Source: a virus. From it: 25,735 bases of DNA. Below, piece after piece: positions 2,590 through 24,227 of the stretch (the stretch's first letter is position 1; every line of letters starts with the position of its first letter). Below the pieces are notes generated by a model. The model searched no databases. It saw only the letters and a program-made list of their open reading frames with translations, and was not told the origin of the DNA. The stretch spans positions 1 through 25,735 of the IMG/VR virus record IMGVR_UViG_3300010354_000571; one strand, given 5' to 3'. Both the position numbers and the translations under genes were made by a program.

Positions 2590-3759
2590 TTATGTTCTAC
2601 CGGCTAAATTTTGACGGCTGAACCCCATACGATCCACAAACTTTAGTCCATGACTCACAAAACCCTCTTGTGTTTGAGTACCGTCTTGCAGATAGCCCTT
2701 TACTGGACTCGATTCTGCTGCTTTATTTAATTGGTCTACAATTGACATTTTCAATGCATAAATAGCGGCCCATATTTCAAAGGCTCCCTTTAGCCCGTCT
2801 GGATTTTGTTCAAAATGAGTCATTATCTTACTACGCATTGAATCAGTCATAGGTCTAGATTGCACATATTCCATGAAGTCTGGCAATAGATTATTTAAAT
2901 CACCCTGTACAATCTTTTTGTTAATATATGTAGTAAACAATTGATTGAACGTATTACGTGCTTGTGGTGCAGAATCTAGCATCTGATCAACTGCAGGACC
3001 ATACTGTTTAATTACTGCATTGGCTTTTCTTACTAAGCCGTTGTTTATTTTCAAATTAGGTGTTATTGGCATCTTAGCAGGTACTATGGCAACGTTACTA
3101 TTATTTTTCAATTTTCCTATAGTCCCGTCTAGTGGCACTGCATCATCGGTTGACGCTGCATTAGCATCAATAAATTGATGCACAACAATGCCCGCTGTTT
3201 TTCCTGTAAGTTCTTTTCCTACCTCACTATTGGGATCTACAGTATAAGTTATTCCGTTTGGATTAGCTCTAAATCTGTATAGTTTGTCAGTACCTGGGCG
3301 CAATGGTTGACTGAACAACAAATCTCCCCAGTAATAACCTTTGCTACGGTCTGCTTTTTCTAGTCCAGGCCAAATGTTAGCAATTAATTGATGCAGGTCT
3401 GTTCTATTCACTCCCCTAGCTTGATCGTATTGAACAAACTGTTCGGGGCTATAAACTTGTCTCCCTGAACCGTCTTTCTTATTGAACATGTGTTTATCCA
3501 TGATGCTGAAACGGCCTTGATCATCACGACCGAATATTAATGCTGGATAGCCGTCCCACTTAATTGTCACTTTACTTGGATTCTGTACAGTATCTATTGA
3601 AGCTTGAACCGCTCTGCTGGCACCTTGACTTCCACCTAAAAATACTAAATCTTCAGGATGGTCTAGATGACCTTTATCTTCTTTTAATGATGGTTTCTGA
3701 AACGTTTCAATATCAGTTAAAACGTTTCTCAAATAAGATAAGGATTCATTTAACTTCAT
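2590..3759 (-). CDS. Ligase/nucleotidyltransferase-fold protein, 389 aa, with KWDG motif
   Basis: Residues 67-70 read KWDG inside VTIKWDGYPALIFGRDDQGR. This matches motif I (KxDG) of the covalent nucleotidyltransferase superfamily of DNA/RNA ligases and capping enzymes, where the Lys takes the AMP or GMP. Further possible matches are GDLLF at 145-149 (motif III-like) and GIVVHQ at 190-195 (motif IV-like). The N-terminal 30 residues look like a tag (MKLNESLSYL) followed by HLDHPEDLVF. A C-terminal helical part of about 150 residues follows. Related phage proteins carry a domain of unknown function with this KWDG signature. The ATG overlaps the TGA of the Gly/Ala-rich gene upstream, so the two are coupled. 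Whether it seals nucleic acid or modifies a protein is unknown. Confidence 0.65.
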   Translation of the reverse strand: MKLNESLSYLRNVLTDIETFQKPSLKEDKGHLDHPEDLVFLGGSQGASRAVQASIDTVQNPSKVTIKWDGYPALIFGRDDQGRFSIMDKHMFNKKDGSGRQVYSPEQFVQYDQARGVNRTDLHQLIANIWPGLEKADRSKGYYWGDLLFSQPLRPGTDKLYRFRANPNGITYTVDPNSEVGKELTGKTAGIVVHQFIDANAASTDDAVPLDGTIGKLKNNSNVAIVPAKMPITPNLKINNGLVRKANAVIKQYGPAVDQMLDSAPQARNTFNQLFTTYINKKIVQGDLNNLLPDFMEYVQSRPMTDSMRSKIMTHFEQNPDGLKGAFEIWAAIYALKMSIVDQLNKAAESSPVKGYLQDGTQTQEGFVSHGLKFVDRMGFSRQNLAGRT

Positions 3760-5438
3760 TTTGGAACTACCGGATTATTTGGTCTGACTGCAACTTCTGA
3801 ACCGGAGTTACCGCCAGGTAATCTAGGTCTTCTATTGTTACCTTGTGCTGCTGCTCTGGCTTGTCTTTCTCTTTCTATTCTATCTCTTGTTTGTTGCTGC
3901 TTTGCTTCTCTGTCACTAGCGGCGATGTGTGTTGTAGATCCTGGTCTAGTAAATGTACTACCACCGGTGGCACTTGTAGTACCAACTTCAGCATCTGGTG
4001 TTCTAGTAGCTACTGCACCACCTGTTCCAGTCTCTGCTGAACTTGCAGGAGGGGATGATGCAGCTGGTTCTGCGGCTGCTGAAGCAGGAGCAGAACTATC
4101 AGGTGTTTTCAATGTCCTTGCTTTGGGTTCTTCTGGTGCCAAATTTGGATTGTTTATTGCCATAACTCCACCCGAAGATAATTCTTTTACTAACTTACTA
4201 TACGCCGCAGCATCAATTTTCTTTAGTCTTGCTAACTGTGACTTAATAATACCAACAAGTTCAGCAGAGGTTGTATTTCCGCCGCTGGATGCCGACGTAG
4301 TTGCTGCGGCGCCACCTCCAGCACCTCCACCTGCTGCACCAGCACCTCCACCTGCTGCACCAGCACCTCCACCTGCTGCACCAGCACCTCCACCTGCTGC
4401 ACCAGCACCTCCACCTGCTGCACCAGCACCTCCACCACCATAATTACCTCCGCCGGCGGGCGCAGATCCTCCGCCGTAACCAGGGCCCTGTGAGGCTGCA
4501 AACGCAGCGTTTGCTAATTTTTCAAATGCTGCCTTTCCTTTATCCCTAGGATAACTATCATTTACAGCTTTAATTAAAGTTTTTGTATGTGTATCATTCA
4601 TGGGTATACCACGTAAATACCATGGTAACCATCTATTCAACCATTGTTCAATAGACTCTGCTTCGTTTAGAATGCCCTCAAATAAATTGTTTAACTTTAA
4701 GTATTTGGTTTCAGCAATAATATACTTGCCATTCTTTTTGTTCTCTTTAAGTAGTGTTAATCCTACATCTTTCCACGTTAGTCCAACTGCTTCTAGCAAC
4801 TGATTAATCCAATATACAGTCCAAGCTTCCATAACTCGCTGACCTGTTTGCAGGGCACGAACCATGTTTCCGCCGGCTTTATTTCGTTGTAATATTGCTT
4901 TAGCAGTAGCTAGTGCATTATCCCATTCAGGATAACCCTTTCTATCTGCCATGAAATTTATAAGTTCTTTAGTTAACGCAATTTTCTTATTTTTATCCGT
5001 CTCTTGATTTAATGCAGCAGAAACGTTACGTATATAATTGTTTATATTTTGATTAGTCTGAGTTTGAGCCTGATATCTACCAGCAGCTTTAGCTCCAGCA
5101 TCTTTAGGAACTCCTGATGTTCCTCCAGAAGGTGCAGCTGGTTCAGTTGCAGGAGGTTCTGCAGGTGATGCGGAGCTAGTGTCAGGTGCTGATTGAATAT
5201 TGGGATCAACTCTGCCGGAAGAAATTTCACTATTTAAGGATTTGTATGCAGCACTAAGGAAGTTATTGATAAACTTTTCTTTGTGTGTTTTGTCTGCTAT
5301 AGACATTTCACCTTCAGTATCACCAGTGATACGATTTCCCATTTGTTTTAGAAAGGCAGCGCCGTAGTCTCCAACCCAATTAGCCAATTTCTCATCTAAT
5401 TTTTTAGGGTTGACATGTTTAAATTCCTTAAGCCTCAT
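3756..5438 (-). CDS. Large Gly/Ala/Pro-rich repeat protein, 560 aa, probable virion-associated
   Basis: The protein starts MRLKEFKHVNPKKLDEKLANW and has a helical N-terminal domain to about residue 75. A Pro/Ala/Ser linker (about 80-120) and a second helical domain (about 125-310) follow. Next comes a Gly/Ala region around 320-375 in which a seven-residue unit (GAGAAGG) is repeated five times. A short helical segment and a long disordered Ser/Ala/Thr/Pro tail ending in basic residues complete it. There is no catalytic motif or membrane helix. The linkers suggest a flexible structural or scaffold-type protein. It lies between an 81-aa gene (overlap 11 nt) and the ligase-like gene (overlap 4 nt). 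LDE at residues 14-16 could be a prohead protease-type site; unproven. Confidence 0.7.
   Translation of the reverse strand: MRLKEFKHVNPKKLDEKLANWVGDYGAAFLKQMGNRITGDTEGEMSIADKTHKEKFINNFLSAAYKSLNSEISSGRVDPNIQSAPDTSSASPAEPPATEPAAPSGGTSGVPKDAGAKAAGRYQAQTQTNQNINNYIRNVSAALNQETDKNKKIALTKELINFMADRKGYPEWDNALATAKAILQRNKAGGNMVRALQTGQRVMEAWTVYWINQLLEAVGLTWKDVGLTLLKENKKNGKYIIAETKYLKLNNLFEGILNEAESIEQWLNRWLPWYLRGIPMNDTHTKTLIKAVNDSYPRDKGKAAFEKLANAAFAASQGPGYGGGSAPAGGGNYGGGGAGAAGGGAGAAGGGAGAAGGGAGAAGGGAGAAGGGAGGGAAATTSASSGGNTTSAELVGIIKSQLARLKKIDAAAYSKLVKELSSGGVMAINNPNLAPEEPKARTLKTPDSSAPASAAAEPAASSPPASSAETGTGGAVATRTPDAEVGTTSATGGSTFTRPGSTTHIAASDREAKQQQTRDRIERERQARAAAQGNNRRPRLPGGNSGSEVAVRPNNPVVPK
4321..4440. repeat. 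21-bp in-frame tandem repeat, five perfect copies plus a partial
   Basis: Perfect 21-bp units begin at 4321, 4342, 4363, 4384 and 4405, and a shortened copy fills 4426-4440. The unit begins gcacctccacc on the plus strand. Each unit adds seven residues (Gly/Ala) to the 560-aa protein. Because 21 is a multiple of three, copy-number change would keep the frame. Identity between copies indicates recent expansion. Confidence 0.95.
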
Positions 5439-9390: not shown

Positions 9391-9955
9391 TTTCTTCTAA
9401 TAGATTCATATGCACAACAACTAAATGTGCGTATGCAATTGCGTGACTTTTCTTGAAAGAGTACTCCGTTCCTGTCTTATTCCATACAGTTTCAGCTACA
9501 TCTTTCCAACTCTTACCTATCAAATGTTTCTTACCTGGTCTAATGATTGCTAATAGCATAGCCAATCTAGGTATACTATTGACAGGCTCTGGCATACTTC
9601 GTATAGTAGAAAATTGATTATTTAGGTGTATCAGCTTTTCTACAAAATCTTTGTTTTTTAAATTGTCCCAATTAGGTTCACTCATCAATTCTACTAAATG
9701 CTTCTCGTCCCTGACTTGATTATAAACATGGACGTTTAACATATCAAGTTTAAGATATCCGCGAGTCTCAGCTACAGTATAGTCAATCGATGCCATGTCA
9801 TTGACAGGATCATATGGAATTTCAGTAACATAAACTCCTGTTGCATGTTTACGTATAGGGTGTACGTTTCTCATGGCAGCAGGTATGTGCGGGATCAGAG
9901 ACAATATTTTATCTCTGTCCCCAAAGTCAATGTCAATGTCACTATTAAACTTCAT
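9374..9955 (-). CDS. Miniature DNA polymerase III alpha-like protein, 193 aa
   Basis: Short segments match the palm of bacterial PolIII alpha (DnaE) in the same order. SDIDIDFGDR (5-14) matches DFDVDF, which holds two catalytic Asp. RKHATGVYV (35-43) matches KHAGGVV. GYLKLDML (66-73) matches GLVKFDFL, which holds the third catalytic Asp. IIRPGK (137-142) matches FRPGP, and FKKSHAIAYA (167-176) matches FNKSHSAAYA. DnaE is over 1,100 aa, so the PHP, most of the fingers and the beta-binding parts are missing. The three acidic residues (D8, D10, D71) are kept. It may be a reduced polymerase-fold enzyme, a primer-handling factor or a decoy. Its ATG overlaps the TGA of the RmlD-like gene. The relationship is inferred from motif order by eye. 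Confidence 0.65.
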   Translation of the reverse strand: MKFNSDIDIDFGDRDKILSLIPHIPAAMRNVHPIRKHATGVYVTEIPYDPVNDMASIDYTVAETRGYLKLDMLNVHVYNQVRDEKHLVELMSEPNWDNLKNKDFVEKLIHLNNQFSTIRSMPEPVNSIPRLAMLLAIIRPGKKHLIGKSWKDVAETVWNKTGTEYSFKKSHAIAYAHLVVVHMNLLEETTVIV

Positions 9956-10728
9956 TTATAATTTTTTGCTGCTAAGTTGACTGCTGATTTTGCGTCCATG
10001 ATAGGGAACACGCTTTGAAGTTTGTCTGTGTTAAGTATACAATTGCTTCGTGGTGCAATCACTGCTTCTTTAAATTCTTCAGGTGTGAACCATTCTTTCT
10101 GTAAGCCCAATGCGGCTGCAATTTCCTTTGTGCTAGTATGTCCTGGATTACACACATTATAAATCCCGCACATAGGTTTGTGCAAGGCAAAATGGACGGC
10201 TGCTCTAGCAACATCAGGAACATAACTTACACTATTTGGATAGTCAATTAGTTTAGCATACTTTTCTAGTTTTGTAAACAAGTTTTTTGGGTGTCTATCA
10301 TCTCCGAACGGCATGCGAATTCTAAACAAATAACTCTTATGCATGAATGGCTCCAGTACTTTTTGTTCTAATGCTTTGCTGCCACTGTAAAAACTTCCGT
10401 TATTAAAATCGAAATTAGGAGGATCGTTTTCGGTAAAATTTTTTTCGTATCCTGTATATACACAACCACTAGAGATATGTAGTATAGGTGTAATAGGATT
10501 ATTATATTCTAATGATAACGGAAACACAACATTACCGTTGATAGTCTGCTGTTTTTCATTTTCACATGCATCGACATTAGGAACGCCAGTGTACCCTGTT
10601 GCATTAATAATAAATGATGCATGTTCAAATAAATCGGTATGGTGTAACCATCGATAGGATACTTGTTGATTGTCTAATTCTTTGGCAATGTGTTCACCTA
10701 TATATCCGTGACCTAGTAAGATAATCAT
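9952..10728 (-). CDS. NAD(P)-dependent sugar-nucleotide reductase/epimerase, RmlD-like
   Basis: A short-chain dehydrogenase of the extended type. The nucleotide-binding loop GHGYIG is at residues 6-11 and the catalytic YxxxK is Y114-SGS-K118. The substrate part includes SSGCVYTG (86-93). The size (258 aa) and sequence style fit dTDP-4-dehydrorhamnose reductase and the plant-type epimerase/reductase. The product of the neighbouring RmlB-like enzyme would be its natural substrate. It overlaps the cytidylyltransferase gene upstream by 4 nt and the PolIII-like gene downstream by 4 nt. No RmlA or RmlC gene is seen here, so the exact sugar cannot be named. Confidence 0.75.
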   Translation of the reverse strand: MIILLGHGYIGEHIAKELDNQQVSYRWLHHTDLFEHASFIINATGYTGVPNVDACENEKQQTINGNVVFPLSLEYNNPITPILHISSGCVYTGYEKNFTENDPPNFDFNNGSFYSGSKALEQKVLEPFMHKSYLFRIRMPFGDDRHPKNLFTKLEKYAKLIDYPNSVSYVPDVARAAVHFALHKPMCGIYNVCNPGHTSTKEIAAALGLQKEWFTPEEFKEAVIAPRSNCILNTDKLQSVFPIMDAKSAVNLAAKNYK

Positions 10729-11207
10729 TTTTTAATTAACTCCGGAGAATGTTGTGGTAAGTCTGCTTCTTGTTCTTTAAGTTCACGTTTTTGCTTTTCT
10801 AAGTCGTATACACGGTTACGCAATTCAGTAGAACTATAATCATGCTCACGCTTATGATAGTGCAATTCAATTCCATTCTGAATGCAGTATTGTTTACCAG
10901 TGAAGTCACGATTTAGATATTCTTCGCTTAAGAACCTGACATCGATTTTCTGTGTCATCAATAACTGTAACAAATCATATTCAGTTGAATAGACTAATAT
11001 TTCATCTACATACTTACAGGCTTGTAATTGTACGTATCTTTCATAGATACTTTGTGTAGGTTTGTTTTTAATACCAGGACGGTCAACCGTAGGGTCAACT
11101 TGCAATGCAACAATAAGATAGTCACATAATTGCTTTTCCATTTTTAGCATAGTAACATGACCTGCGTGAAACAAGTCAAAACTACTACAGTTAAATCCTA
11201 TCTTCAT
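10725..11207 (-). CDS. Cytidylyltransferase-like protein (TagD/HldE type)
   Basis: The HxGH signature H14-A-G-H17 (FDLFHAGHV) and a downstream YSSTELR (124-130), the counterpart of the usual ISTT-x-x-R, define the nucleotidyltransferase fold that joins CMP or AMP to a phosphorylated alcohol or sugar. At 160 aa the length suits glycerol-3-phosphate cytidylyltransferase plus a Lys/Glu-rich C-terminal helix that is not part of the core. The product could be CDP-glycerol, an ADP-heptose type or a related molecule. It lies between RmlB- and RmlD-like genes with overlaps of 17 and 4 nt, so it probably belongs to the same surface-sugar or modification pathway. Confidence 0.8.
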   Translation of the reverse strand: MKIGFNCSSFDLFHAGHVTMLKMEKQLCDYLIVALQVDPTVDRPGIKNKPTQSIYERYVQLQACKYVDEILVYSTEYDLLQLLMTQKIDVRFLSEEYLNRDFTGKQYCIQNGIELHYHKREHDYSSTELRNRVYDLEKQKRELKEQEADLPQHSPELIKK

Positions 11208-12126
11208 ATCTTTTTATCCATTCAATAGTCATATCTAACCCTTTATCTAATGATGTTTTTGGTCGCCATCCAAGCTCATTTTGAATCTTGGTTATATCCG
11301 TTGCATATCTAATGTCATGTCCTGGCCTATCAGTAACAAACTCTATTAGATTCGTGCTAGCATTCATTTTATCTATGATGGAATGTACTAACTCTAAATT
11401 TTTTGTTTCATTGCCGCCACCTATGCAGTATCGGTTACCAATGTTTCCCATAAACATTACACGCATGATAGCATCGCAGGTATCTTCGACATAGATCCAA
11501 TCACGTATTTGGTCACCTTTTCCATAAACAGGGATTTTTTGATTTCTAAGTATCTTCCCAACTGTCAAAGGTATCAACTTTTCAGGATATTGAAAGGGGC
11601 CATAGTTATTAGAACTGTTTACAATAACATAGGGCAATTTGTAAGTGTTGCCATATGCAATGACAAAATGCTCTGCTGAAGCTTTACTAGCAGAATACGG
11701 ATTACGTGGACATATATTTGAGTATTCGTTAAACTTGCCGGGTGCAGGAACTTCCCCGAATACTTCGTCGGTAGATATGTGTACAAACTTTTCTATCTTG
11801 TGCTTTCTAGCTTGGTCTAATAGATTTACAGTACCTATAACATTAGACTGAATGAACGGTGAGCAATCTTTAATAGAATTGTCTACATGACTTTCTGCCG
11901 CAAAATGTACAATTTGGTCAAATGAGTGAGTTGAGAATAGTTCGTCTAAAGCTTTACTATCAGCAATATCGATAACTTCATAATCAATACCCATAGCTTC
12001 TAGTTCTTCTAGGTTACTAGCATAACCCATTTTATCAATCACAAACACTTTTGCAGTTGTGTGTTTTCTAATGTGCTTAACAAAATTAATTCCTATAAAG
12101 CCAGCACCACCGGTAATCAATATCAT
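11191..12126 (-). CDS. dTDP-glucose 4,6-dehydratase-like protein (RmlB family)
   Basis: The protein has the Rossmann loop GGAGFIG (6-12), the dehydratase triad segment STDEVFGE (T119, D120, E121) and Y144-SAS-K148. Together these identify the NAD-dependent dehydratase that makes a 4-keto-6-deoxy sugar nucleotide. The 311-aa length is slightly short of the usual 330-360 aa. It would supply substrate to the RmlD-like enzyme two genes on. It overlaps the DexA-like gene by 4 nt, so it is in the same long transcript. Phage-encoded sugar genes can remodel host surface polysaccharide or decorate phage DNA or tail proteins; which of these applies cannot be told here. Confidence 0.88.
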   Translation of the reverse strand: MILITGGAGFIGINFVKHIRKHTTAKVFVIDKMGYASNLEELEAMGIDYEVIDIADSKALDELFSTHSFDQIVHFAAESHVDNSIKDCSPFIQSNVIGTVNLLDQARKHKIEKFVHISTDEVFGEVPAPGKFNEYSNICPRNPYSASKASAEHFVIAYGNTYKLPYVIVNSSNNYGPFQYPEKLIPLTVGKILRNQKIPVYGKGDQIRDWIYVEDTCDAIMRVMFMGNIGNRYCIGGGNETKNLELVHSIIDKMNASTNLIEFVTDRPGHDIRYATDITKIQNELGWRPKTSLDKGLDMTIEWIKRYEDRI

Positions 12127-12686
12127 TGTAACAACCCTGCCTTTATTAACTTTTTATATGCATCCTGAACTACGATTGCTTGATGTTCGGCATCTTCTAC
12201 CGCCTTGTGTGTAGTTTTACTGCCATACTTTTTATCTTTAAGACTCACGCCTGCAACTTCATATAAGGTTCGTGTGTCACGTACAGTATAATATGGCCAA
12301 GGAATAGCATTAGGATACTCAGTCAACGTTTGTCTGAAACCTGATTCACATGCTACTACGTCAAAGCTAGCACCATTGCTCCAAACAGCACGACGGTTCC
12401 AACAAAATTTATAAAGGGTCTCCATGCAAGACTTAAATGATTCTCGTCCCCTGTCTCCCAATGCTTCTTCAAGTGCATCAGGGCTCTGCGTAGACCACCA
12501 TCGTAATGTATCTTCATTAATAATCCTATTGTGTATTTCTGTTTGATCTTCAATAGTAGGGCGCAGTTCTAACTTTTCTACGACACCCATGCCTTTAGGA
12601 TCGAACCTAACTGCACCTATTGTAAGTATCACACAGTTTGGACTTGTATCTAATGTTTCCAAGTCAATCATTATATCATTTGCCAT
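12123..12686 (-). CDS. dexA: 3'-5' exonuclease, DEDDh type, DexA-like
   Basis: The DEDDh active site is complete: D8 and E10 in MIDLET, D109 in NGASFD, H160 and D165 in HKAVEDAEHQ. The substrate-facing segment WNRRAVWSNGASFD is characteristic of the T4 DexA group of 3'-5' exonucleases, which are about 190-230 aa. The enzyme would degrade DNA 3' ends, possibly of the host. It overlaps the endonuclease VII-like gene upstream by 11 nt and RmlB downstream by 4 nt. Confidence 0.88.
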   Translation of the reverse strand: MANDIMIDLETLDTSPNCVILTIGAVRFDPKGMGVVEKLELRPTIEDQTEIHNRIINEDTLRWWSTQSPDALEEALGDRGRESFKSCMETLYKFCWNRRAVWSNGASFDVVACESGFRQTLTEYPNAIPWPYYTVRDTRTLYEVAGVSLKDKKYGSKTTHKAVEDAEHQAIVVQDAYKKLIKAGLLQ

Positions 12687-13080
12687 TCAAATACTCCATT
12701 GCCTTTCTGCATCTTTCAGGATCATCACCCAAATTACCTAATCCTAAATTACATTTATGACAGAGCCAACCTCTGAATTCTTCTGTCTTATGATTATGAT
12801 CTGCTACCCATACGGATTTTTTATTCTTTCCATATGTAGCTAAGTCATCTGAACTTCTATCACATATAGGACATTTATAATCATTTGGAATTGCTGGCGC
12901 AGTCTTTTTAATCTTTGCAACTAGTTTACCATGCTTTTTAGCACAGTCTCTGCATTCGTATCTTAGATAACCCTTGCTACCTTCTTTAGCGAAATTCCAT
13001 AACGGAACTTGCTGTTTGCAAATAGTACAAAGTTTTGTATCTTCTTCTACGCCTTCAAAAAATGTCGATAAGGTGTTCAT
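12676..13080 (-). CDS. Endonuclease VII-like nuclease with two zinc sites
   Basis: Two Cys-rich pairs, CTIC (18-21) with CRDC (43-46) and CPIC (70-73) with CHKC (107-110), are likely to bind two zincs. The second pair flanks DHNHKTEEFRGWLC (94-107), the beta-beta-alpha metal motif of the endonuclease VII family (T4 gp49 resolves branched DNA during packaging). At 134 aa it is near T4 gp49 (157 aa). A Trp-Asn-Phe segment (VPLWNFAKE) lies between the first pair. It may be a junction resolvase or an HNH homing nuclease of the same fold; its position in a DNA-metabolism operon favours the former. Confidence 0.8.
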   Translation of the reverse strand: MNTLSTFFEGVEEDTKLCTICKQQVPLWNFAKEGSKGYLRYECRDCAKKHGKLVAKIKKTAPAIPNDYKCPICDRSSDDLATYGKNKKSVWVADHNHKTEEFRGWLCHKCNLGLGNLGDDPERCRKAMEYLNGK

Positions 13081-14331: not shown

Positions 14332-14571
14332 TCAGGACCATCTCAACGTAAAAAGTATGTAATCACGTTCGTATCTAAATTTAAATCTAGATTCATTTTC
14401 AAAACCATTTATCCACCTGCAATGTCTTTCGCAATTATCAAGTTTTTCGTATAACCATTCTACCATTTGTTCGTGTTTTGTTTGATTCGAAGGCGTAATT
14501 ATGCATTCGAACCATCGGTTTGAATCATTCCATCCTTTAGTATAATCGTAATGGTTATTAGCATATCCCAT
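14332..14571 (-). CDS. Hypothetical protein, 79 aa
   Basis: No family recognised. The sequence is aromatic and charged (GYANNHYDYTKGWND, WFECIITPSNQ, CERHCRWINGFENESR) with alternating strands likely. Its ATG abuts the TAA of the subtilase gene without a gap, and the stop abuts the next gene. Such end-to-end packing supports real coding. It may be related to the neighbouring 80-aa protein in composition, but no sequence identity is evident. Confidence 0.62.
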   Translation of the reverse strand: MGYANNHYDYTKGWNDSNRWFECIITPSNQTKHEQMVEWLYEKLDNCERHCRWINGFENESRFKFRYERDYILFTLRWS

Positions 14572-16617
14572 TTAAAAAGTCTTAGACATAGAAAAACCCA
14601 ATGCTAAATCACTAACACCAGCTTGCCCTCTATAATTTTGTCTATTTTCTACAAAGAACATAGATTTAATATCATTGTGTATAAATTTATGATAAAGTCC
14701 TAGACGCACTTCTTTTACGGTTGCAGCCAAATTAACTTTAGAATTTTGTATAACATTAAAATCACTATCAAGTCCAACAGGAGCAATAACATTTGCCATT
14801 GCTTTATAAATAGTTACCGGTTCATAAAACATGAATCCTAACTTGTGTTTTCCGATTTCCTGTTCGGCTCCTGCTATCCATCCGTGACTAAATACGTTGC
14901 CAATAGATAAAATATTTTCGCTGTTTGATCTTGTAAATGTAATACCTGTATTATAAGACATATAAAACTTAGATGCGTTGATAGTTTTATTTATTTTCAA
15001 AGACCCGTAGTAGGTGTTGCTATTTTTATTGTTGCCTTCGCCTATGAAACTTCCTACACTATTACCTAACCAAGTATTCTTTTCGCTGAATGTTCCTGCT
15101 GACATACCAAAGTCAAAAGAATCAAATGTTTTGTTATATGTTAGTTCAAACATACCCAAGGTATCATCATTCATATTCTTATACACATTCATGTGTAAAT
15201 TCTTTGTACCCACAGTAAATGTATTGGTGTAATTGTTGAACAATGCGTAAGGATTTTGCGTATCATAAACCATTAAGGTTTGTGCCAAGTTAAATTGATT
15301 TGGGGTGTAACGTGCAGTCAATGCTTCACCGGGTGTGTAAAAATCTCTTTCAAAAGAATCTACAACCATCAACTTCGTTAGACCTCCTGTACTTGCGCTG
15401 CCTCCAGTGTATACCAATGGTTTTACTGTTGATAAATTTGGTCCTGCTAATCTACCAGTAGTAGGAATTCCTAGCTTACCTACAGGACGAGTGGCATTTT
15501 CTAAATCTAGTAGGCCTTGACCATGAACATAAAGATTATAGTTGGGTATGTTTTTGTTTGCGGTTACTAATAATAGTTTAACTACATTCGAACCCTTCAT
15601 TTGTGGCCACATTTGATGAATGATTGCAGCAGCGCCAGATATCACCGGTGCAGACATAGATGTTCCTGTCATTGTTGATAGTCCAGTAGGCTGTAATGCA
15701 GCATCATACTTTTGAGGTATTCCCGCAGTTTTGGGTACAGTACTTAGAATGCTTGTGCCTGGTGCCATTAAATAAAACTCCCAAGTCTTGTACTTGTCAG
15801 CACAATATTGAGTATTCATAACACCATTAACAGTATTTTGGCACAAGTGTGCGGCACTGTTACTGCTAGAATTTAGAGTGTTCGTTGAAGAATTGTAATT
15901 TCCAGCTATTATGATTCTTCCACCAAATAATAGATTACCCTTTGCATCAGTAACTGTAGCTAATCCTGCTAATCCTTGTGACCATTTTGTACCGTCGTTT
16001 CCTGCCGACATAACAATCACCGATTCTCCTGATAGTGCCTGTGACAAGTTATTAACGCTGAACAATGTGCTTATAGGCAAATTACCAGTGTTAGTAAATT
16101 TAGTTGTGTACACACCTGTACTCAGTGGCTTTGCTGATAGATAACTTTGTGAGAGACTCCAACCCAAACTTAAGTTCAAAACATCTACGCCTGTGGAATT
16201 AACCCATGAAATTGCATTAACAAGATTATTTGTAGTGACTGATCCATTGTCAGTTACTTTTCCGATAACTAATTTTGAATCAAATGCAACTCCATGCACT
16301 CCGATATTGTCTTTAGCAGCCGCAGCTATACCTGCTACGTGTGTTCCATGTCCTATCCTATCGATAGGAGTACCTGATCCTGAAAAATCTTTAATGAAAA
16401 GAATTTTATTAATAAATTGATTACTGCTCGTATCTATACCACTATCAACAATTCCTATAACGCTATCCTTTCCTGTATATCCTCTAGCATATGCAGAGCT
16501 AGCATTGATTGATTTTAATGCACCACTCAAGCTATATTCAGGTGTTTGAAACGATGCCTGCGAGTACGCATTCAAAGATAACGGTAATAAAATTAAAGAC
16601 AAAAATTTAAGTTTCAT
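14572..16617 (-). CDS. Secreted subtilisin-like serine protease (S8) with a barrel-like C-terminus
   Basis: A signal peptide is clear: MKLKFLSLILLPLSLNAYSQ (1-20), with cleavage likely after Ala-rich YSQA. The S8 triad is complete: D58 (VDSGID), H90 (GHGTHVAG) and S320 (GTSMSAP), with oxyanion N207 (SAGNDG). Following a linker, residues from about 410 to 681 form a beta-rich domain that ends ALGFSMSKTF, an alternating strand with C-terminal Phe, the classic outer-membrane insertion signature. This is the architecture of subtilase autotransporters of Gram-negative bacteria. It is rare for a phage; most phage proteases are for head assembly and lack a signal peptide. It would be exported by the host Sec system and displayed or released at the outer membrane. 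The C-terminal barrel is inferred from pattern, not structure. Confidence 0.85.
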   Translation of the reverse strand: MKLKFLSLILLPLSLNAYSQASFQTPEYSLSGALKSINASSAYARGYTGKDSVIGIVDSGIDTSSNQFINKILFIKDFSGSGTPIDRIGHGTHVAGIAAAAKDNIGVHGVAFDSKLVIGKVTDNGSVTTNNLVNAISWVNSTGVDVLNLSLGWSLSQSYLSAKPLSTGVYTTKFTNTGNLPISTLFSVNNLSQALSGESVIVMSAGNDGTKWSQGLAGLATVTDAKGNLLFGGRIIIAGNYNSSTNTLNSSSNSAAHLCQNTVNGVMNTQYCADKYKTWEFYLMAPGTSILSTVPKTAGIPQKYDAALQPTGLSTMTGTSMSAPVISGAAAIIHQMWPQMKGSNVVKLLLVTANKNIPNYNLYVHGQGLLDLENATRPVGKLGIPTTGRLAGPNLSTVKPLVYTGGSASTGGLTKLMVVDSFERDFYTPGEALTARYTPNQFNLAQTLMVYDTQNPYALFNNYTNTFTVGTKNLHMNVYKNMNDDTLGMFELTYNKTFDSFDFGMSAGTFSEKNTWLGNSVGSFIGEGNNKNSNTYYGSLKINKTINASKFYMSYNTGITFTRSNSENILSIGNVFSHGWIAGAEQEIGKHKLGFMFYEPVTIYKAMANVIAPVGLDSDFNVIQNSKVNLAATVKEVRLGLYHKFIHNDIKSMFFVENRQNYRGQAGVSDLALGFSMSKTF

Positions 16618-16624
16618 AGTTTTC

Positions 16625-17326
16625 CTAATACCCTGCGGTTGCTAAAAGTTTTCGTACTTCTTTTACATCATCTGGATTCTTATGTAGTTTCAATGCCCAC
16701 TGCTCAGGATTGATATAGTCTATGATGATTTTCACCTGTGTTTCATCTAAGTTATCTAGAAATTCTTGACCGCTTGTGCTATGATACAACATCCACGGAC
16801 TTAATTTTCCCTTAGTTATTTCATAACAGATTTTATTTTTGTTACCAAATCTCAATACATCTTTGGACAGTATTTTTTCTCGTTCAGATAAGACTATAGT
16901 AGTTTCTATACTTCTTGCAATAGCATCTAATGGATCTTCGATACGCAAATATTCGATAAGAAATTTCGTGTAATTGCTATCTGTATTCCATGTGTCGATC
17001 TTGACTTGATTTTTAACTAGCCAATCTGCATACCTAGGCACATTGATGACACCAACTTCAGTACAATACAAACCGAACTTAATAAAGGCTGCATAATAAG
17101 CTGATTTGATGAATTCATCATATGTCTTTGTTTTCTTACTTGCAGAATTCTTTTTGTAGAATTGTACCCATGCTTGAAATCCTATGCGATTACATGGTCT
17201 ATCTTTTTCTAACCAGCGGTGTTTATATTCGCAGATGTGCTTAAGGATTGTGGATTCACGTATGAATGTTCTTCCACAAAACTCACATCCGTACTTTGTA
17301 TTACCCGTTTCCTCTGTCTTTTTCAT
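16625..17326 (-). CDS. Hypothetical protein, 233 aa, with N-terminal C2H2 zinc finger
   Basis: Residues 14-36 hold a zinc finger with C14, C17, H30 and H36, the classical C-x2-C-x12-H-x5-H spacing. The remaining 190 residues are helical and mixed-charge, without a known catalytic motif. A DNA- or protein-binding role is plausible. The gene lies between the gp62-like subunit (overlap 26 nt) and the protease (7-nt gap), so it is probably replication-associated; the family is unknown to me. Confidence 0.72.
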   Translation of the reverse strand: MKKTEETGNTKYGCEFCGRTFIRESTILKHICEYKHRWLEKDRPCNRIGFQAWVQFYKKNSASKKTKTYDEFIKSAYYAAFIKFGLYCTEVGVINVPRYADWLVKNQVKIDTWNTDSNYTKFLIEYLRIEDPLDAIARSIETTIVLSEREKILSKDVLRFGNKNKICYEITKGKLSPWMLYHSTSGQEFLDNLDETQVKIIIDYINPEQWALKLHKNPDDVKEVRKLLATAGY

Positions 17327-20962: not shown

Positions 20963-21199
20963 TCATTGACACTTTACACCCTTACCAAACTCGTCCATTA
21001 CCTGCCGGGCTTGACCCATATCACCAATCACGAATTTGTATCCATCGATACAACGAACCTCGGTCATTCCGTTGATACCCCAACTGATACTGTTGCCTTC
21101 CTTATATCCGTTGACTGCACCGAACACCGTTAGGATTACGATGCCGATGATCACGATCACGACCATCATTTCGATCAGAGTGAAACCTTTTTGCTTCAT
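20963..21199 (-). CDS. Type IV prepilin-like protein, 78 aa
   Basis: The N-terminus MKQKGFTLIEMMVVIVIIGI is a textbook class III (type IV pilin/pseudopilin) leader: basic residues, Gly5 at the cleavage point, Phe6 as the new N-terminus and Glu10 (mature position 5), then about 20 hydrophobic residues. The host prepilin peptidase would be expected to cut and methylate it. The mature part (about 73 aa) is much shorter than pilins (about 130-160 aa). It has C50 and C77, which could form a disulfide near the C-terminus. It starts 4 nt after the AAA+ ATPase and is the last gene before the terminator, so it is translated from the same early message. Its role is unknown; jamming or altering host pilus or type II secretion assembly is one possibility. 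Confidence 0.85.
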   Translation of the reverse strand: MKQKGFTLIEMMVVIVIIGIVILTVFGAVNGYKEGNSISWGINGMTEVRCIDGYKFVIGDMGQARQVMDEFGKGVKCQ

Positions 21200-21203
21200 G
21201 ATA

Positions 21204-22226
21204 TTAAGCCTTCATGCAAGTAGCACGTGCCAGATTCTTCCAGTTAGTCGGGCTGATCTTGACCAGATCCGCAATCTTGAGAGTCATGCGGAGACTGATT
21301 TCACGGAGCTTGTTGTGATTGTCCCACATGAAGTCAAGCACCATATCTTCTTGCTCCTTAGTGAAGCCGTAGTCAACGAACAGACCAGGATCAGCATCAC
21401 GATGCACTTGCTTGATGCGGAGCATCTTGTCACGCTCGGTGTTGATAGTCAGATCCAAGAAGTGACTACGAGACTGGAGAGCATCCAAGTGAGGCTGAAT
21501 CTTAGTAGCCCGCTTGTTGTCGAAGGTCTTGTTAGTAATGAAGATGATAGAACCGTGAAAGTCAAACGTGTTCGGGACACCTTCTTCACGCAGGAGTCGA
21601 GAATCCTTGTTGTAAGAGATTCGACGGGTCTTGCCAGAGTCAAGCGCACCCTTGAGAATGTTCACAGCATCCTGATCTTCCCAAATGTCGCAGTCATCGA
21701 ACACCAGGACGTTCTTAGCATCGGAGTACTTGTACAGCAATGCGAACAGACCGATCGCCGACATAGTACCCTTGACAATCTCGAAACGGACCTTGCGACC
21801 AGCCAGCTTGTCGAACATGCTAGCCTTTTCCATTTGCGTAGTCACACCGTGCGACTTACCGACACCAGGAGGGCCAGTAACGATCATAGCACGGATATCA
21901 CCTGCGATACATGCCTTAGACATTTCATCGAGGATGCCGAAACGCTCGGCGATGCGATCCATAGCCTGCTCATCAGTCTCGGTAACAACCTCAGCGACGG
22001 GCTCGGACACTTGTGCGACCACCGGGGCACCGTTCAGAAATTCGATATCGGACATGCCATTGACCTTGATCTTGACGACAGGAATCGCAACGTCAAACTG
22101 ACCGTCGTTTTGAACGGTAACATAGTTACCTTTCTTGCCAGTTTGAAAGCCCTTGACGAGGGTAAACACCTCGTTCTTGACGGCTTGATTGCGATAAGAA
22201 CCAGAAAGAATGCGAATCGTTGACAT
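21204..22226 (-). CDS. AAA+ ATPase, 340 aa, early gene
   Basis: The start at 22226 (MSTIRILSGSYRNQAV) follows a GGAGC ribosome site. Walker A is GPPGVGKS (118-125), Walker B is VLVFDDCD (173-180), and FHGSIIFITNK (about 228-238) looks like sensor 1. The N-terminal 65 residues are beta-rich (KGNYVTVQNDGQ, PVVKIKVNG) and may be an oligonucleotide- or partner-binding domain. A Pro/Val/Glu linker joins the two. AAA+ ATPases of this size occur in many phages, mostly without a known target. The gene is under an early-type promoter (22259-22287) and is coupled to the prepilin-like gene. It is not a pilus motor: the Asp/His boxes of PilB/PilT are absent. Confidence 0.85.
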   Translation of the reverse strand: MSTIRILSGSYRNQAVKNEVFTLVKGFQTGKKGNYVTVQNDGQFDVAIPVVKIKVNGMSDIEFLNGAPVVAQVSEPVAEVVTETDEQAMDRIAERFGILDEMSKACIAGDIRAMIVTGPPGVGKSHGVTTQMEKASMFDKLAGRKVRFEIVKGTMSAIGLFALLYKYSDAKNVLVFDDCDIWEDQDAVNILKGALDSGKTRRISYNKDSRLLREEGVPNTFDFHGSIIFITNKTFDNKRATKIQPHLDALQSRSHFLDLTINTERDKMLRIKQVHRDADPGLFVDYGFTKEQEDMVLDFMWDNHNKLREISLRMTLKIADLVKISPTNWKNLARATCMKA

Positions 22227-22258
22227 ATTTGCTCCGTGTCTCAACTGTCTATGTATGT

Positions 22259-22287
22259 ATTATATACCCAAATCCATTTATTGTCAA
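22259..22287 (-). promoter_or_regulatory. Early promoter P1, TTGACA-17-TATAAT
   Basis: Both hexamers match the sigma70 consensus exactly at 17-nt spacing. It drives the AAA+ ATPase and the prepilin-like gene. The spacer (starting ATAAATGG and containing TTTGGGTA) is shared with P6 and P7, differing by a base or two. The leader contains CATAGACAGTT, shared with P3. Confidence 0.93.
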
Positions 22288-22297
22288 CCTGCAGGCC

Positions 22298-23020: not shown

Positions 23021-23052
23021 ACGATCTCTGTTATCTAACTGTCTATGAGACT

Positions 23053-23081
23053 ATTATATGCCCAAACCGATTTATTGTCAA
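23053..23081 (-). promoter_or_regulatory. Early promoter P3, TTGACA-17-TATAAT
   Basis: Both hexamers are perfect. The spacer (ATAAATCGG then TTTGGGCA) is nearly the same as in P1, P6 and P7. It lies 3 nt after the TAA of the 57-aa gene and drives the 55-aa gene. Confidence 0.93.
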
Positions 23082-23084
23082 GCC

Positions 23085-23258
23085 TTAGGAATTCACAGTA
23101 TTGAAAGGACTGTAGGAATCATCGTCCTCTTGCATGGTTTTCAAGGTATCATAAACCCAAGAAAGGGGAACACCGAGAATCTTGGCTACAAGAACCGGGT
23201 GCATACCCTCAGCCAAATAATCTTGGATTTCCAAAGAAATTTCACCCATCTTAGACAT
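23085..23258 (-). CDS. Small early protein, 57 aa, possible helix-turn-helix
   Basis: The protein begins MSKMGEISLEIQDYLAEGMH and then has VAKILGVPLSWVYDTLK (24-40), which has the spacing of a helix-turn-helix (hydrophobic-Ala, turn at G-V-P, second helix with a Trp-Val pair). The tail is acidic (MQEDDDSYSPF). It could be a small DNA-binding regulator, unproven. It has no promoter of its own with a -10 element; it is read from P5 together with the 70-aa gene. Its ATG is the ATG of a TTGACAATAAATG element, with AAAGG 10 nt upstream as a ribosome site. Confidence 0.72.
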   Translation of the reverse strand: MSKMGEISLEIQDYLAEGMHPVLVAKILGVPLSWVYDTLKTMQEDDDSYSPFNTVNS

Positions 23259-23484: not shown

Positions 23485-23514
23485 AAAGAACTCCTTCTGA
23501 CTGAATAAGACTCT

Positions 23515-23543
23515 ATTATAGAGCCTTATGGATTTATTGTCAA
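23515..23543 (-). promoter_or_regulatory. Early promoter P5, TTGACA-17-TATAAT
   Basis: Perfect hexamers. The -35 overlaps the TGA stop of the 80-aa gene. The -10 is inside a palindrome, CTCTATAATAGAG (5-bp arms, 3-nt centre, 23511-23523), that could bind a repressor. It drives the 70- and 57-aa genes. Confidence 0.93.
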
Positions 23544-23782
23544 GCCAGATCCAACTGGACTTGCAGACCTTCCCAAGTACCAGCAAGACCCACGGCGCAC
23601 TGGTCAGCAAGACCCTTACCCGAGCGAGTGAATTCTAGGGCGTCAAGAGCCTTTTGGGTTGCAGCATTGCACTTGGTGAAATCACCGATACCGTTGCGAA
23701 TCTGTTTGGCAGTAGCATAAAAGCATGCCGATTCAACGATAACACGAAAACGTTGGGATTGCTTGAAACGTTTGATAGTCAT
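23540..23782 (-). CDS. Small early protein, 80 aa, basic
   Basis: The start at 23782 is preceded by AAGGAG; the upstream ATG at 23800 is not. The N-terminus is basic (MTIKRFKQSQRFRVIVES). The middle is Ala-rich and helical with three Cys. No function is recognised. The TGA stop is inside the P5 TTGACA. Confidence 0.75.
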   Translation of the reverse strand: MTIKRFKQSQRFRVIVESACFYATAKQIRNGIGDFTKCNAATQKALDALEFTRSGKGLADQCAVGLAGTWEGLQVQLDLA

Positions 23783-23811
23783 GTCAGACTCCTTAATCAA
23801 TCAATACACGT

Positions 23812-23840
23812 ATTGTATAGCCAAACCCATTTATTGTCAA
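23812..23840 (-). promoter_or_regulatory. Early promoter P6, TTGACA-17-TACAAT
   Basis: Perfect -35 and a -10 with one change. The spacer (ATAAATGGG, then TTTGGCTA) belongs to the P1/P3/P7 type. The -35 overlaps the TGA of the 63-aa gene. The -10 region carries CAATAC-AC-GTATTG on the plus strand (6-bp arms, 23802-23815), a possible operator. It drives the 80-aa gene. Confidence 0.9.
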
Positions 23841-24028
23841 ATTTTGGCAATTCGCCGAAACTTCAGACGCCAAAACATCTGCCACATTCGGCTTTGTTTG
23901 GTCCAATGCAGGCTCTTAGTACCCCTAAGAAACTTGCCGTCAACAAGCTTACCGAAGGGCTTGGGCTTGGGCTGCCCACGCAACAGCTTGTAGGAGACTC
24001 TTTCGTATGGCGTCATTTTGATGTTCAT
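23837..24028 (-). CDS. Small early protein, 63 aa, strongly basic
   Basis: The two candidate ATGs are at 24028 (MNIKMTPYERVSYK) and 24016 (MTPYERVSYK). The longer start is taken because P7 ends 6 nt before it, and neither ATG has a ribosome site. The product has many Lys and Arg (KPKPFGKLVDGKFLRGTKS, WRLKFRRIAKI) and three Trp residues, and may bind nucleic acid. The TGA is in the P6 TTGACA. No family is recognised. Confidence 0.7.
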   Translation of the reverse strand: MNIKMTPYERVSYKLLRGQPKPKPFGKLVDGKFLRGTKSLHWTKQSRMWQMFWRLKFRRIAKI

Positions 24029-24034
24029 GTCTGT

Positions 24035-24063
24035 ATGATATACCCAAACCCATTTATTGTCAA
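24035..24063 (-). promoter_or_regulatory. Early promoter P7, TTGACA-17-TATCAT
   Basis: Perfect -35 and a -10 with one change. The spacer is ATAAATGGG then TTTGGGTA. TATCAT, then ACAGAC, then ATG, so the start point falls at the start codon. The -35 overlaps the TGA of the 55-aa gene upstream. Confidence 0.9.
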
Positions 24064-24227
24064 GCCTGAAAATCACGCTCAAGCTTGTCCAAAATACGGG
24101 TGATCCTGCGCTTATGCTGCCGAACAGCGGTCTTGCGGTCCTTAGGAGCCGGGCCGCAGCAAGTGCAAAACCAGCCACCGGGACCCACACGGGCGTGATG
24201 ACGGGCATTGAACAAGTTGGTCTTCAT
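24060..24227 (-). CDS. Small early protein, 55 aa, with CTCC cysteine cluster
   Basis: The start at 24227 has AAGGAG upstream. The protein (MKTNLFNARHHARVGPGG, then WFCTCCGPAPKDRK) has three Cys in a row of four and two His before them, which may bind zinc. The rest is a long basic helix (TAVRQHKRRITRILDKLER). The TGA stop overlaps the P7 -35. No family is recognised. A zinc-binding nucleic-acid protein is one reading. Confidence 0.72.
   Translation of the reverse strand: MKTNLFNARHHARVGPGGWFCTCCGPAPKDRKTAVRQHKRRITRILDKLERDFQA

What the first reader, a model, noticed from the sequence alone, without database searches (positions are those of the whole stretch)
14572..16617. Phage-encoded subtilase with autotransporter-like architecture
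Seen in the sequence: signal peptide, complete Asp/His/Ser triad (D58, H90, S320), and a beta-rich C-terminus ending in an alternating strand with terminal Phe. In bacteria this layout belongs to subtilase autotransporters that sit in the outer membrane. It lies in a replication operon, in frame and unbroken, so it is probably used. I infer that the infected host would export an active protease, which could alter receptors, prevent superinfection or aid release. I know of no well-studied phage system with this design.
Basis: partly seen in the sequence, partly recalled or inferred. Interest (0 to 1): 0.9.

Follow-up and report, generated by a model that had tools for sequence, protein, structure and literature searches.

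The report
Phage-encoded outer-membrane subtilisin-type protease
Many uncultured giant bacterial viruses carry a gene for a protein-cutting enzyme joined to an outer-membrane anchor, which would place an active protease in the outer membrane of the infected cell; that is unusual for a virus, but its targets and purpose are not yet known.

Summary
ORF 14572-16617(-), 681 aa, has a Sec signal, a complete subtilase (S8) domain with D58/H90/S320 and a C-terminal beta-barrel ending in Phe. AlphaFold (pLDDT 88.8; barrel alone 90.9) and PDB comparisons match the barrel almost only to outer-membrane proteins, NalP, EspP and Hbp translocators among them. The gene is not a contaminant. About 85 further IMG/VR contigs, mostly relatives of PA5oct-type jumbo phages, carry it full-length or truncated at contig ends. 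Triad plus oxyanion Asn are invariant in the 39 aligned members, 37 of these end exactly in an aromatic residue, and dN/dS is 0.06-0.16. A colinear sister phage (~89% nt identity) lacks exactly this one gene. The gene occurs at two genomic sites; away from the window's site it often has its own near-consensus sigma70 promoter about 60 nt upstream. By sequence the barrel is not the classical autotransporter domain (PF03797): it matches, at 99.6% probability, the barrel of an uncharacterised bacterial S8-barrel family. Best reading: an outer-membrane subtilase made during infection that trims the host surface, most likely against superinfection. Architecture and export are well supported; surface exposure is likely; the purpose is inferred. 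New variant of a known kind.

The parts
14572..16617 (-). Whole gene: exported subtilase (S8) fused to a C-terminal outer-membrane-type beta-barrel, 681 aa
16561..16617 (-). Sec signal peptide, residues 1-19 (predicted cleavage AYS|QA)
   Evidence: heuristic; pLDDT below 50 for residues 1-20
15484..16545 (-). Subtilisin-like catalytic domain, residues about 25-378; aligns from mature residue 1 of subtilisin, so no separate I9-type propeptide
   Evidence: Pfam S8; VIA Z 38.1, rmsd 1.6, 267 residues against 1st3
16444..16446 (-). Catalytic Asp58 codon
   Evidence: invariant in 39 of 39
16348..16350 (-). Catalytic His90 codon
   Evidence: invariant in 39 of 39
15658..15660 (-). Catalytic Ser320 codon (GTSMSAP)
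   Evidence: invariant in 39 of 39
15334..15375 (-). Linker motif MVVDSFERDFY region (D420, R424 invariant, D425 near-invariant), shared with bacterial S8-barrel proteins
14575..15225 (-). C-terminal beta-barrel, residues about 465-681, ending in Phe681
   Evidence: AlphaFold pLDDT 90.9 for 395-681; fold matches to outer-membrane barrels
16625..17326 (-). Upstream flanking gene (phrog_11058; PA5oct gp265 homologue), left edge of insertion site 1
14332..14571 (-). Downstream flanking gene (79 aa); in the sister L118 it directly follows the phrog_11058 gene

Best explanation
The gene encodes a phage-borne outer-membrane protease. Sec exports it, BAM inserts the C-terminal barrel through the terminal aromatic signal, and the subtilase domain is held at the outer membrane, most likely on the outside as in subtilase autotransporters. 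It is made while the phage replicates: in the window it is co-transcribed with replication-block genes, and in many relatives at the other site it has its own host-type promoter. The most likely purpose is to trim host surface proteins, above all phage receptors and adhesins, so that the infected cell and its debris no longer bind more phage (superinfection exclusion and protection of progeny). Shown here: sequence architecture, conservation, purifying selection, accessory behaviour, presence across a phage clade. Predicted: barrel fold and export. Inferred: co-transcription, surface exposure, activity, substrate and purpose.
For: S8 domain and triad. Sec signals in 50 of 50 members, three with a lipobox. 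Barrel model with confident fold matches nearly all to outer-membrane proteins, including NalP translocator Z 12.1, EspP 11.9, Hbp 11.8. Conserved terminal aromatic. Two near-invariant Cys in the protease domain (C259, C272). Barrel-only profile finds bacterial proteins of which 9 of 10 examined carry S8 upstream. dN/dS 0.06-0.16. Clean single-gene presence/absence. Near-consensus sigma70 promoter just upstream in 15 of 36 non-redundant members against 9.8% of other ORFs, and no T4-type late TATAAATA in 36, which argues for expression before the late phase. Bacterial subtilase autotransporters such as NalP and SphB1 process other surface proteins (PMC9289746).
Against: No experiment. Strand count in the model is 11 or 12; I could not read coordinates to see whether the barrel closes or which side the protease faces. 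No beta-helix stalk. PF03797 not matched. No receptor or substrate identified; no host known. The window copy has no promoter of its own. Whether this phage clade uses T4-type late promoters was not tested, so their absence is weak evidence. The sister without the gene shows that it is dispensable.
Confidence: 0.5

Rival explanations
1. The barrel anchors the protease with the S8 domain facing the periplasm, where it degrades host periplasmic or envelope proteins, for example stress or defence factors, or weakens the envelope before lysis.
For: Sec export and outer-membrane barrel are equally compatible; the barrel sequence is not the PF03797 translocator; no stalk.
Against: An odd count of 11 strands with the C-terminus in the periplasm, or an autotransporter-type plug helix before the first strand, would both put the protease outside (inference). 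Three members have a lipobox as NalP-like surface proteases do. Promoter evidence argues against a lysis gene.
Confidence: 0.25
2. A metabolic aid: the surface or released protease digests environmental protein to feed the infected cell, or matures host surface proteins, without a role in phage competition.
For: Accessory presence and absence; environmental metagenome origin; bacterial homologues in 24 of 398 Pseudomonadota genomes.
Against: Virulent infection is short (own knowledge); no transporter or peptidase partner genes stood out beside it in the neighbourhoods inspected (neighbours not systematically annotated).
Confidence: 0.15
3. Host DNA captured by mis-assembly, or a decaying passenger gene.
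For: Bacterial homologue L086 lies in a genuine chromosome-like contig.
Against: About 85 further viral contigs, viral clade in the tree with two recurrent genomic contexts, clean insertion next to a sister without it, purifying selection.
Confidence: 0.02

Closest known systems
Subtilisin-like autotransporters (type Va; NalP, SphB1, EprS, Ssp; Group 15 in PMC9289746)
   Same: Sec signal, N-terminal S8 protease, C-terminal outer-membrane barrel ending in an aromatic residue; some members lipidated
   Different: Barrel not PF03797 by Pfam or by profile-profile comparison; no ~200-residue beta-helix stalk; 681 aa; encoded by phages
Uncharacterised bacterial S8-barrel proteins without a PF03797 hit (L086, L108-L114, L116, L117)
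   Same: S8 plus homologous barrel (profile-profile probability 99.6%, E 5.6e-24); linker motif (V/L)Dx[FY]xRx[FY] in several
   Different: Chromosomal and mostly longer; the viral proteins form a group of their own except that L086 nests among them
A0A6J5TBB6, peptidase S8/S53 domain protein, uncultured Caudovirales phage (BFVD)
   Same: Full-length fold match, TM 0.76, 27% identity
   Different: Annotated only as a peptidase; no study found
Other phage S8 proteases (phrog_3677; Bacillus phages)
   Same: S8 domain
   Different: Match limited to at most 21% of the window protein; no barrel match found

Membership tests
Peptidase family S8 (subtilase) | S8 fold with Asp/His/Ser triad and oxyanion Asn | tested here: met
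Peptidase family S8 (subtilase) | Proteolytic activity | not testable with these tools
   no assay possible
Classical autotransporter (type Va) | Sec signal peptide | tested here: met
   heuristic scan; no SignalP available
Classical autotransporter (type Va) | PF03797 translocator sequence | tested here: not met
   no Pfam hit in 39 members; hhalign probability 5.6% against a PF03797 set from 30 loci, 99.6% against the bacterial S8-barrel set
Classical autotransporter (type Va) | C-terminal 12-stranded outer-membrane barrel | tested here: inconclusive
   outer-membrane-type barrel fold; DSSP gives 11 long strands or 12 with a short one; closure not verified
Classical autotransporter (type Va) | Terminal aromatic residue (BAM signal) | tested here: met
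Classical autotransporter (type Va) | Passenger displayed outside the cell | not testable with these tools
   needs localisation experiment
Subtilisin-like autotransporter, Group 15 | Beta-helix stalk of about 200 aa between protease and barrel | tested here: not met
   only about 85 residues separate S8 (ends ~378) and the first barrel strand (465), without a beta-helix pattern in DSSP
Bacterial S8-barrel family without PF03797 | S8 domain plus homologous C-terminal barrel | tested here: met

The most novel reading that the evidence does not exclude
Virulent jumbo phages carry a mobile, horizontally moved class of outer-membrane surface proteases, secreted by a barrel family distinct from known autotransporters, which remodel the infected cell's surface during early infection to exclude competing phages.
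Probability: 0.3. Interest if true: 0.85.

Novelty: new variant of a known kind. Interest (0 to 1): 0.62.

Why it matters
Phage-encoded surface changes are known mostly as small lipoproteins, porins or lipopolysaccharide enzymes (own knowledge). A widespread, conserved, catalytically intact outer-membrane protease in jumbo phages would be a proteolytic way to change what an infected cell shows to other phages, and it defines an apparently unstudied S8-barrel family shared with bacteria. The natural pair of nearly identical phages with and without the gene makes the question testable.

Tried and rejected
Contamination or mis-assembly: rejected. Link to neighbouring nucleotide-sugar genes (RmlB-, RmlD- and cytidylyltransferase-like): no association with S8 across 44 contigs spanning site 1; the associations seen for the oxygenase (positive) and the exonuclease (negative) are probably lineage effects. 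PF03797 homology: not found. Solved-structure sequence search with the barrel profile: no relevant hit. Full-length match in GenBank phages: none. A more divergent member gave no full-length match either. Literature searches for phage-encoded autotransporters gave no described case in the held library; a 2026 jumbo-phage review has no occurrence of 'autotransporter'. The structural list covers the protease only, so the barrel was modelled and searched alone.

Full report
Observation. The window is a whole IMG/VR virus record of 25,735 bases. The ORF at 14572-16617 on the minus strand encodes 681 aa. Pfam finds Peptidase_S8 over residues 49-360, E 6.6e-33, and nothing else. The N-terminus is a Sec-type signal with a plausible AYS|QA site; 50 of 50 distinct 5'-complete members pass the same heuristic, and three carry a lipobox.

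Fold. AlphaFold with the 39-row alignment gives mean pLDDT 88.8 and pTM 0.81. The first domain is subtilisin (Z 38.1 to 1st3, aligned from mature residue 1, so no separate propeptide). Residues 395-681 modelled alone give pLDDT 90.9 and pTM 0.86. Their best structural matches are almost all outer-membrane barrels: KdgM Z 14.5, FapF 13.6, NanC 12.5, NalP translocator 12.1, EspP 11.9, Hbp 11.8, AIDA-I 11.5, BrkA 11.4, EstA 11.2 (Foldseek one search agrees, with weak E-values of 1e-4 to 1e-3). The top Z scores are close together, so they identify the class of fold, not a particular family. The predicted strands alternate in hydrophobicity more than shuffles (2 of 5000). DSSP shows 11 long strands, or 12 with a short one; I could not read coordinates, so closure and sidedness are unverified.

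Is it an autotransporter? By sequence, not a classical one. No member hits PF03797. Profile-profile comparison gives 5.6% probability against a set of PF03797 barrels from 30 loci, but 99.6% (E 5.6e-24, 193 columns) against the C-termini of bacterial S8 proteins; reversed controls give 0.6-1.1% (the bacterial member L086 was left out of the phage set, but the bacterial set was found with a profile that included it). Those bacterial proteins were found by a barrel-only profile in 24 of 398 Pseudomonadota genomes, and 9 of the 10 examined carry an S8 domain upstream and no PF03797. Several share the linker motif (V/L)Dx[FY]xRx[FY]. A review describes subtilisin-like autotransporters as a ~400 aa protease, a ~200 aa beta-helix and a PF03797 barrel, and says that NalP and SphB1 process other surface proteins (PMC9289746). 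The window protein has no such stalk. It therefore works like a compact subtilase autotransporter, but belongs to another S8-barrel family.

Distribution. Alignment-guided search of IMG/VR gave 76 loci with relatives, and a search anchored on the upstream gene added nine more contigs. Some are truncated by contig ends and some contigs are near-duplicates. 37 of 39 aligned members end exactly in an aromatic residue. GenBank phages have no full-length match; BFVD holds one uncultured-phage protein with TM 0.76. The window phage and many carriers are relatives of PA5oct-, Atu_ph07- and Rak2-like jumbo phages of Gram-negative hosts (the Rak2 name is own knowledge). In a quick tree the viral proteins group apart from the bacterial ones except L086, which nests among them; the window's site-1 members nest within site-2 members.

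Mobility and selection. The gene sits at two places. Site 1, as here, is directly after the phrog_11058 gene; 13 of 70 contigs with enough sequence have it there, in a sample enriched for the window's relatives. PA5oct goes straight from gp265 to gp264. Site 2 is near QueE and the RNase H-like exonuclease, where PA5oct has no S8. A few carriers (for example L059, L060, L081) have other neighbourhoods. The sister L118, about 89% identical in DNA and colinear, has 14 bases where the window has 2,067, which removes exactly the S8 gene, and its 124,789-base contig has no S8 elsewhere. Pairwise dN/dS is 0.06-0.16 in both domains wherever it could be computed, though dS is saturated in the more distant pairs.

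Expression. Outside the window's group, the S8 gene often has its own promoter: 15 of 36 non-redundant members have at least 11 of 12 sigma70 consensus bases within 120 nt upstream, mostly near -60, against 9.8% for other ORFs (p 6e-7, not corrected for relatedness). No member has TATAAATA there. The window copy has no own promoter; it lies 7 nt after the upstream gene. This fits expression before the late phase rather than a lysis role.

Conclusion. Architecture, catalytic competence by sequence, export, phage origin and maintenance are well supported. Outer-membrane insertion is a confident prediction. Surface exposure, activity and a purpose in superinfection exclusion or receptor trimming are inferences that need the listed tests.

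Noticed in passing
22226-22292, 23024-23086, 23491-23548, 23786-23851, 24024-24068: Five similar dispersed elements of the type TTGACAATAAAT..GGTTTGGG.TATA.AAT on the minus strand, near-consensus sigma70 promoters with a conserved spacer, in front of short genes.
   Followed up: partly
20963-21199 (-): Small ORF with a type IV prepilin-like N-terminus (MKQKGFTLIEMMVV); weak phrog pilin match.
   Followed up: no
9955-12126 (-): RmlD-like, cytidylyltransferase and RmlB-like (dTDP-glucose dehydratase) genes, absent from the sister L118, as is the endonuclease VII gene at 12679-13080.
   Followed up: partly
3756-5438 (-): ORF with a Gly/Ala-rich GGGAGAA repeat tract around 4230-4440.
   Followed up: no
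L086 5155-7926: Bacterial S8-barrel gene lies between rmlC/rmlD-like and rmlA-like genes and near TamA/TamB-like genes in a Gammaproteobacteria MAG (named by eye).
   Followed up: no
L015-L054 and others, site 2: S8 neighbourhood includes QueE-, FolE-, QueD- and tRNA-guanine-transglycosylase-like genes, suggesting 7-deazaguanine DNA modification in these phages (FolE, others by eye).
   Followed up: partly
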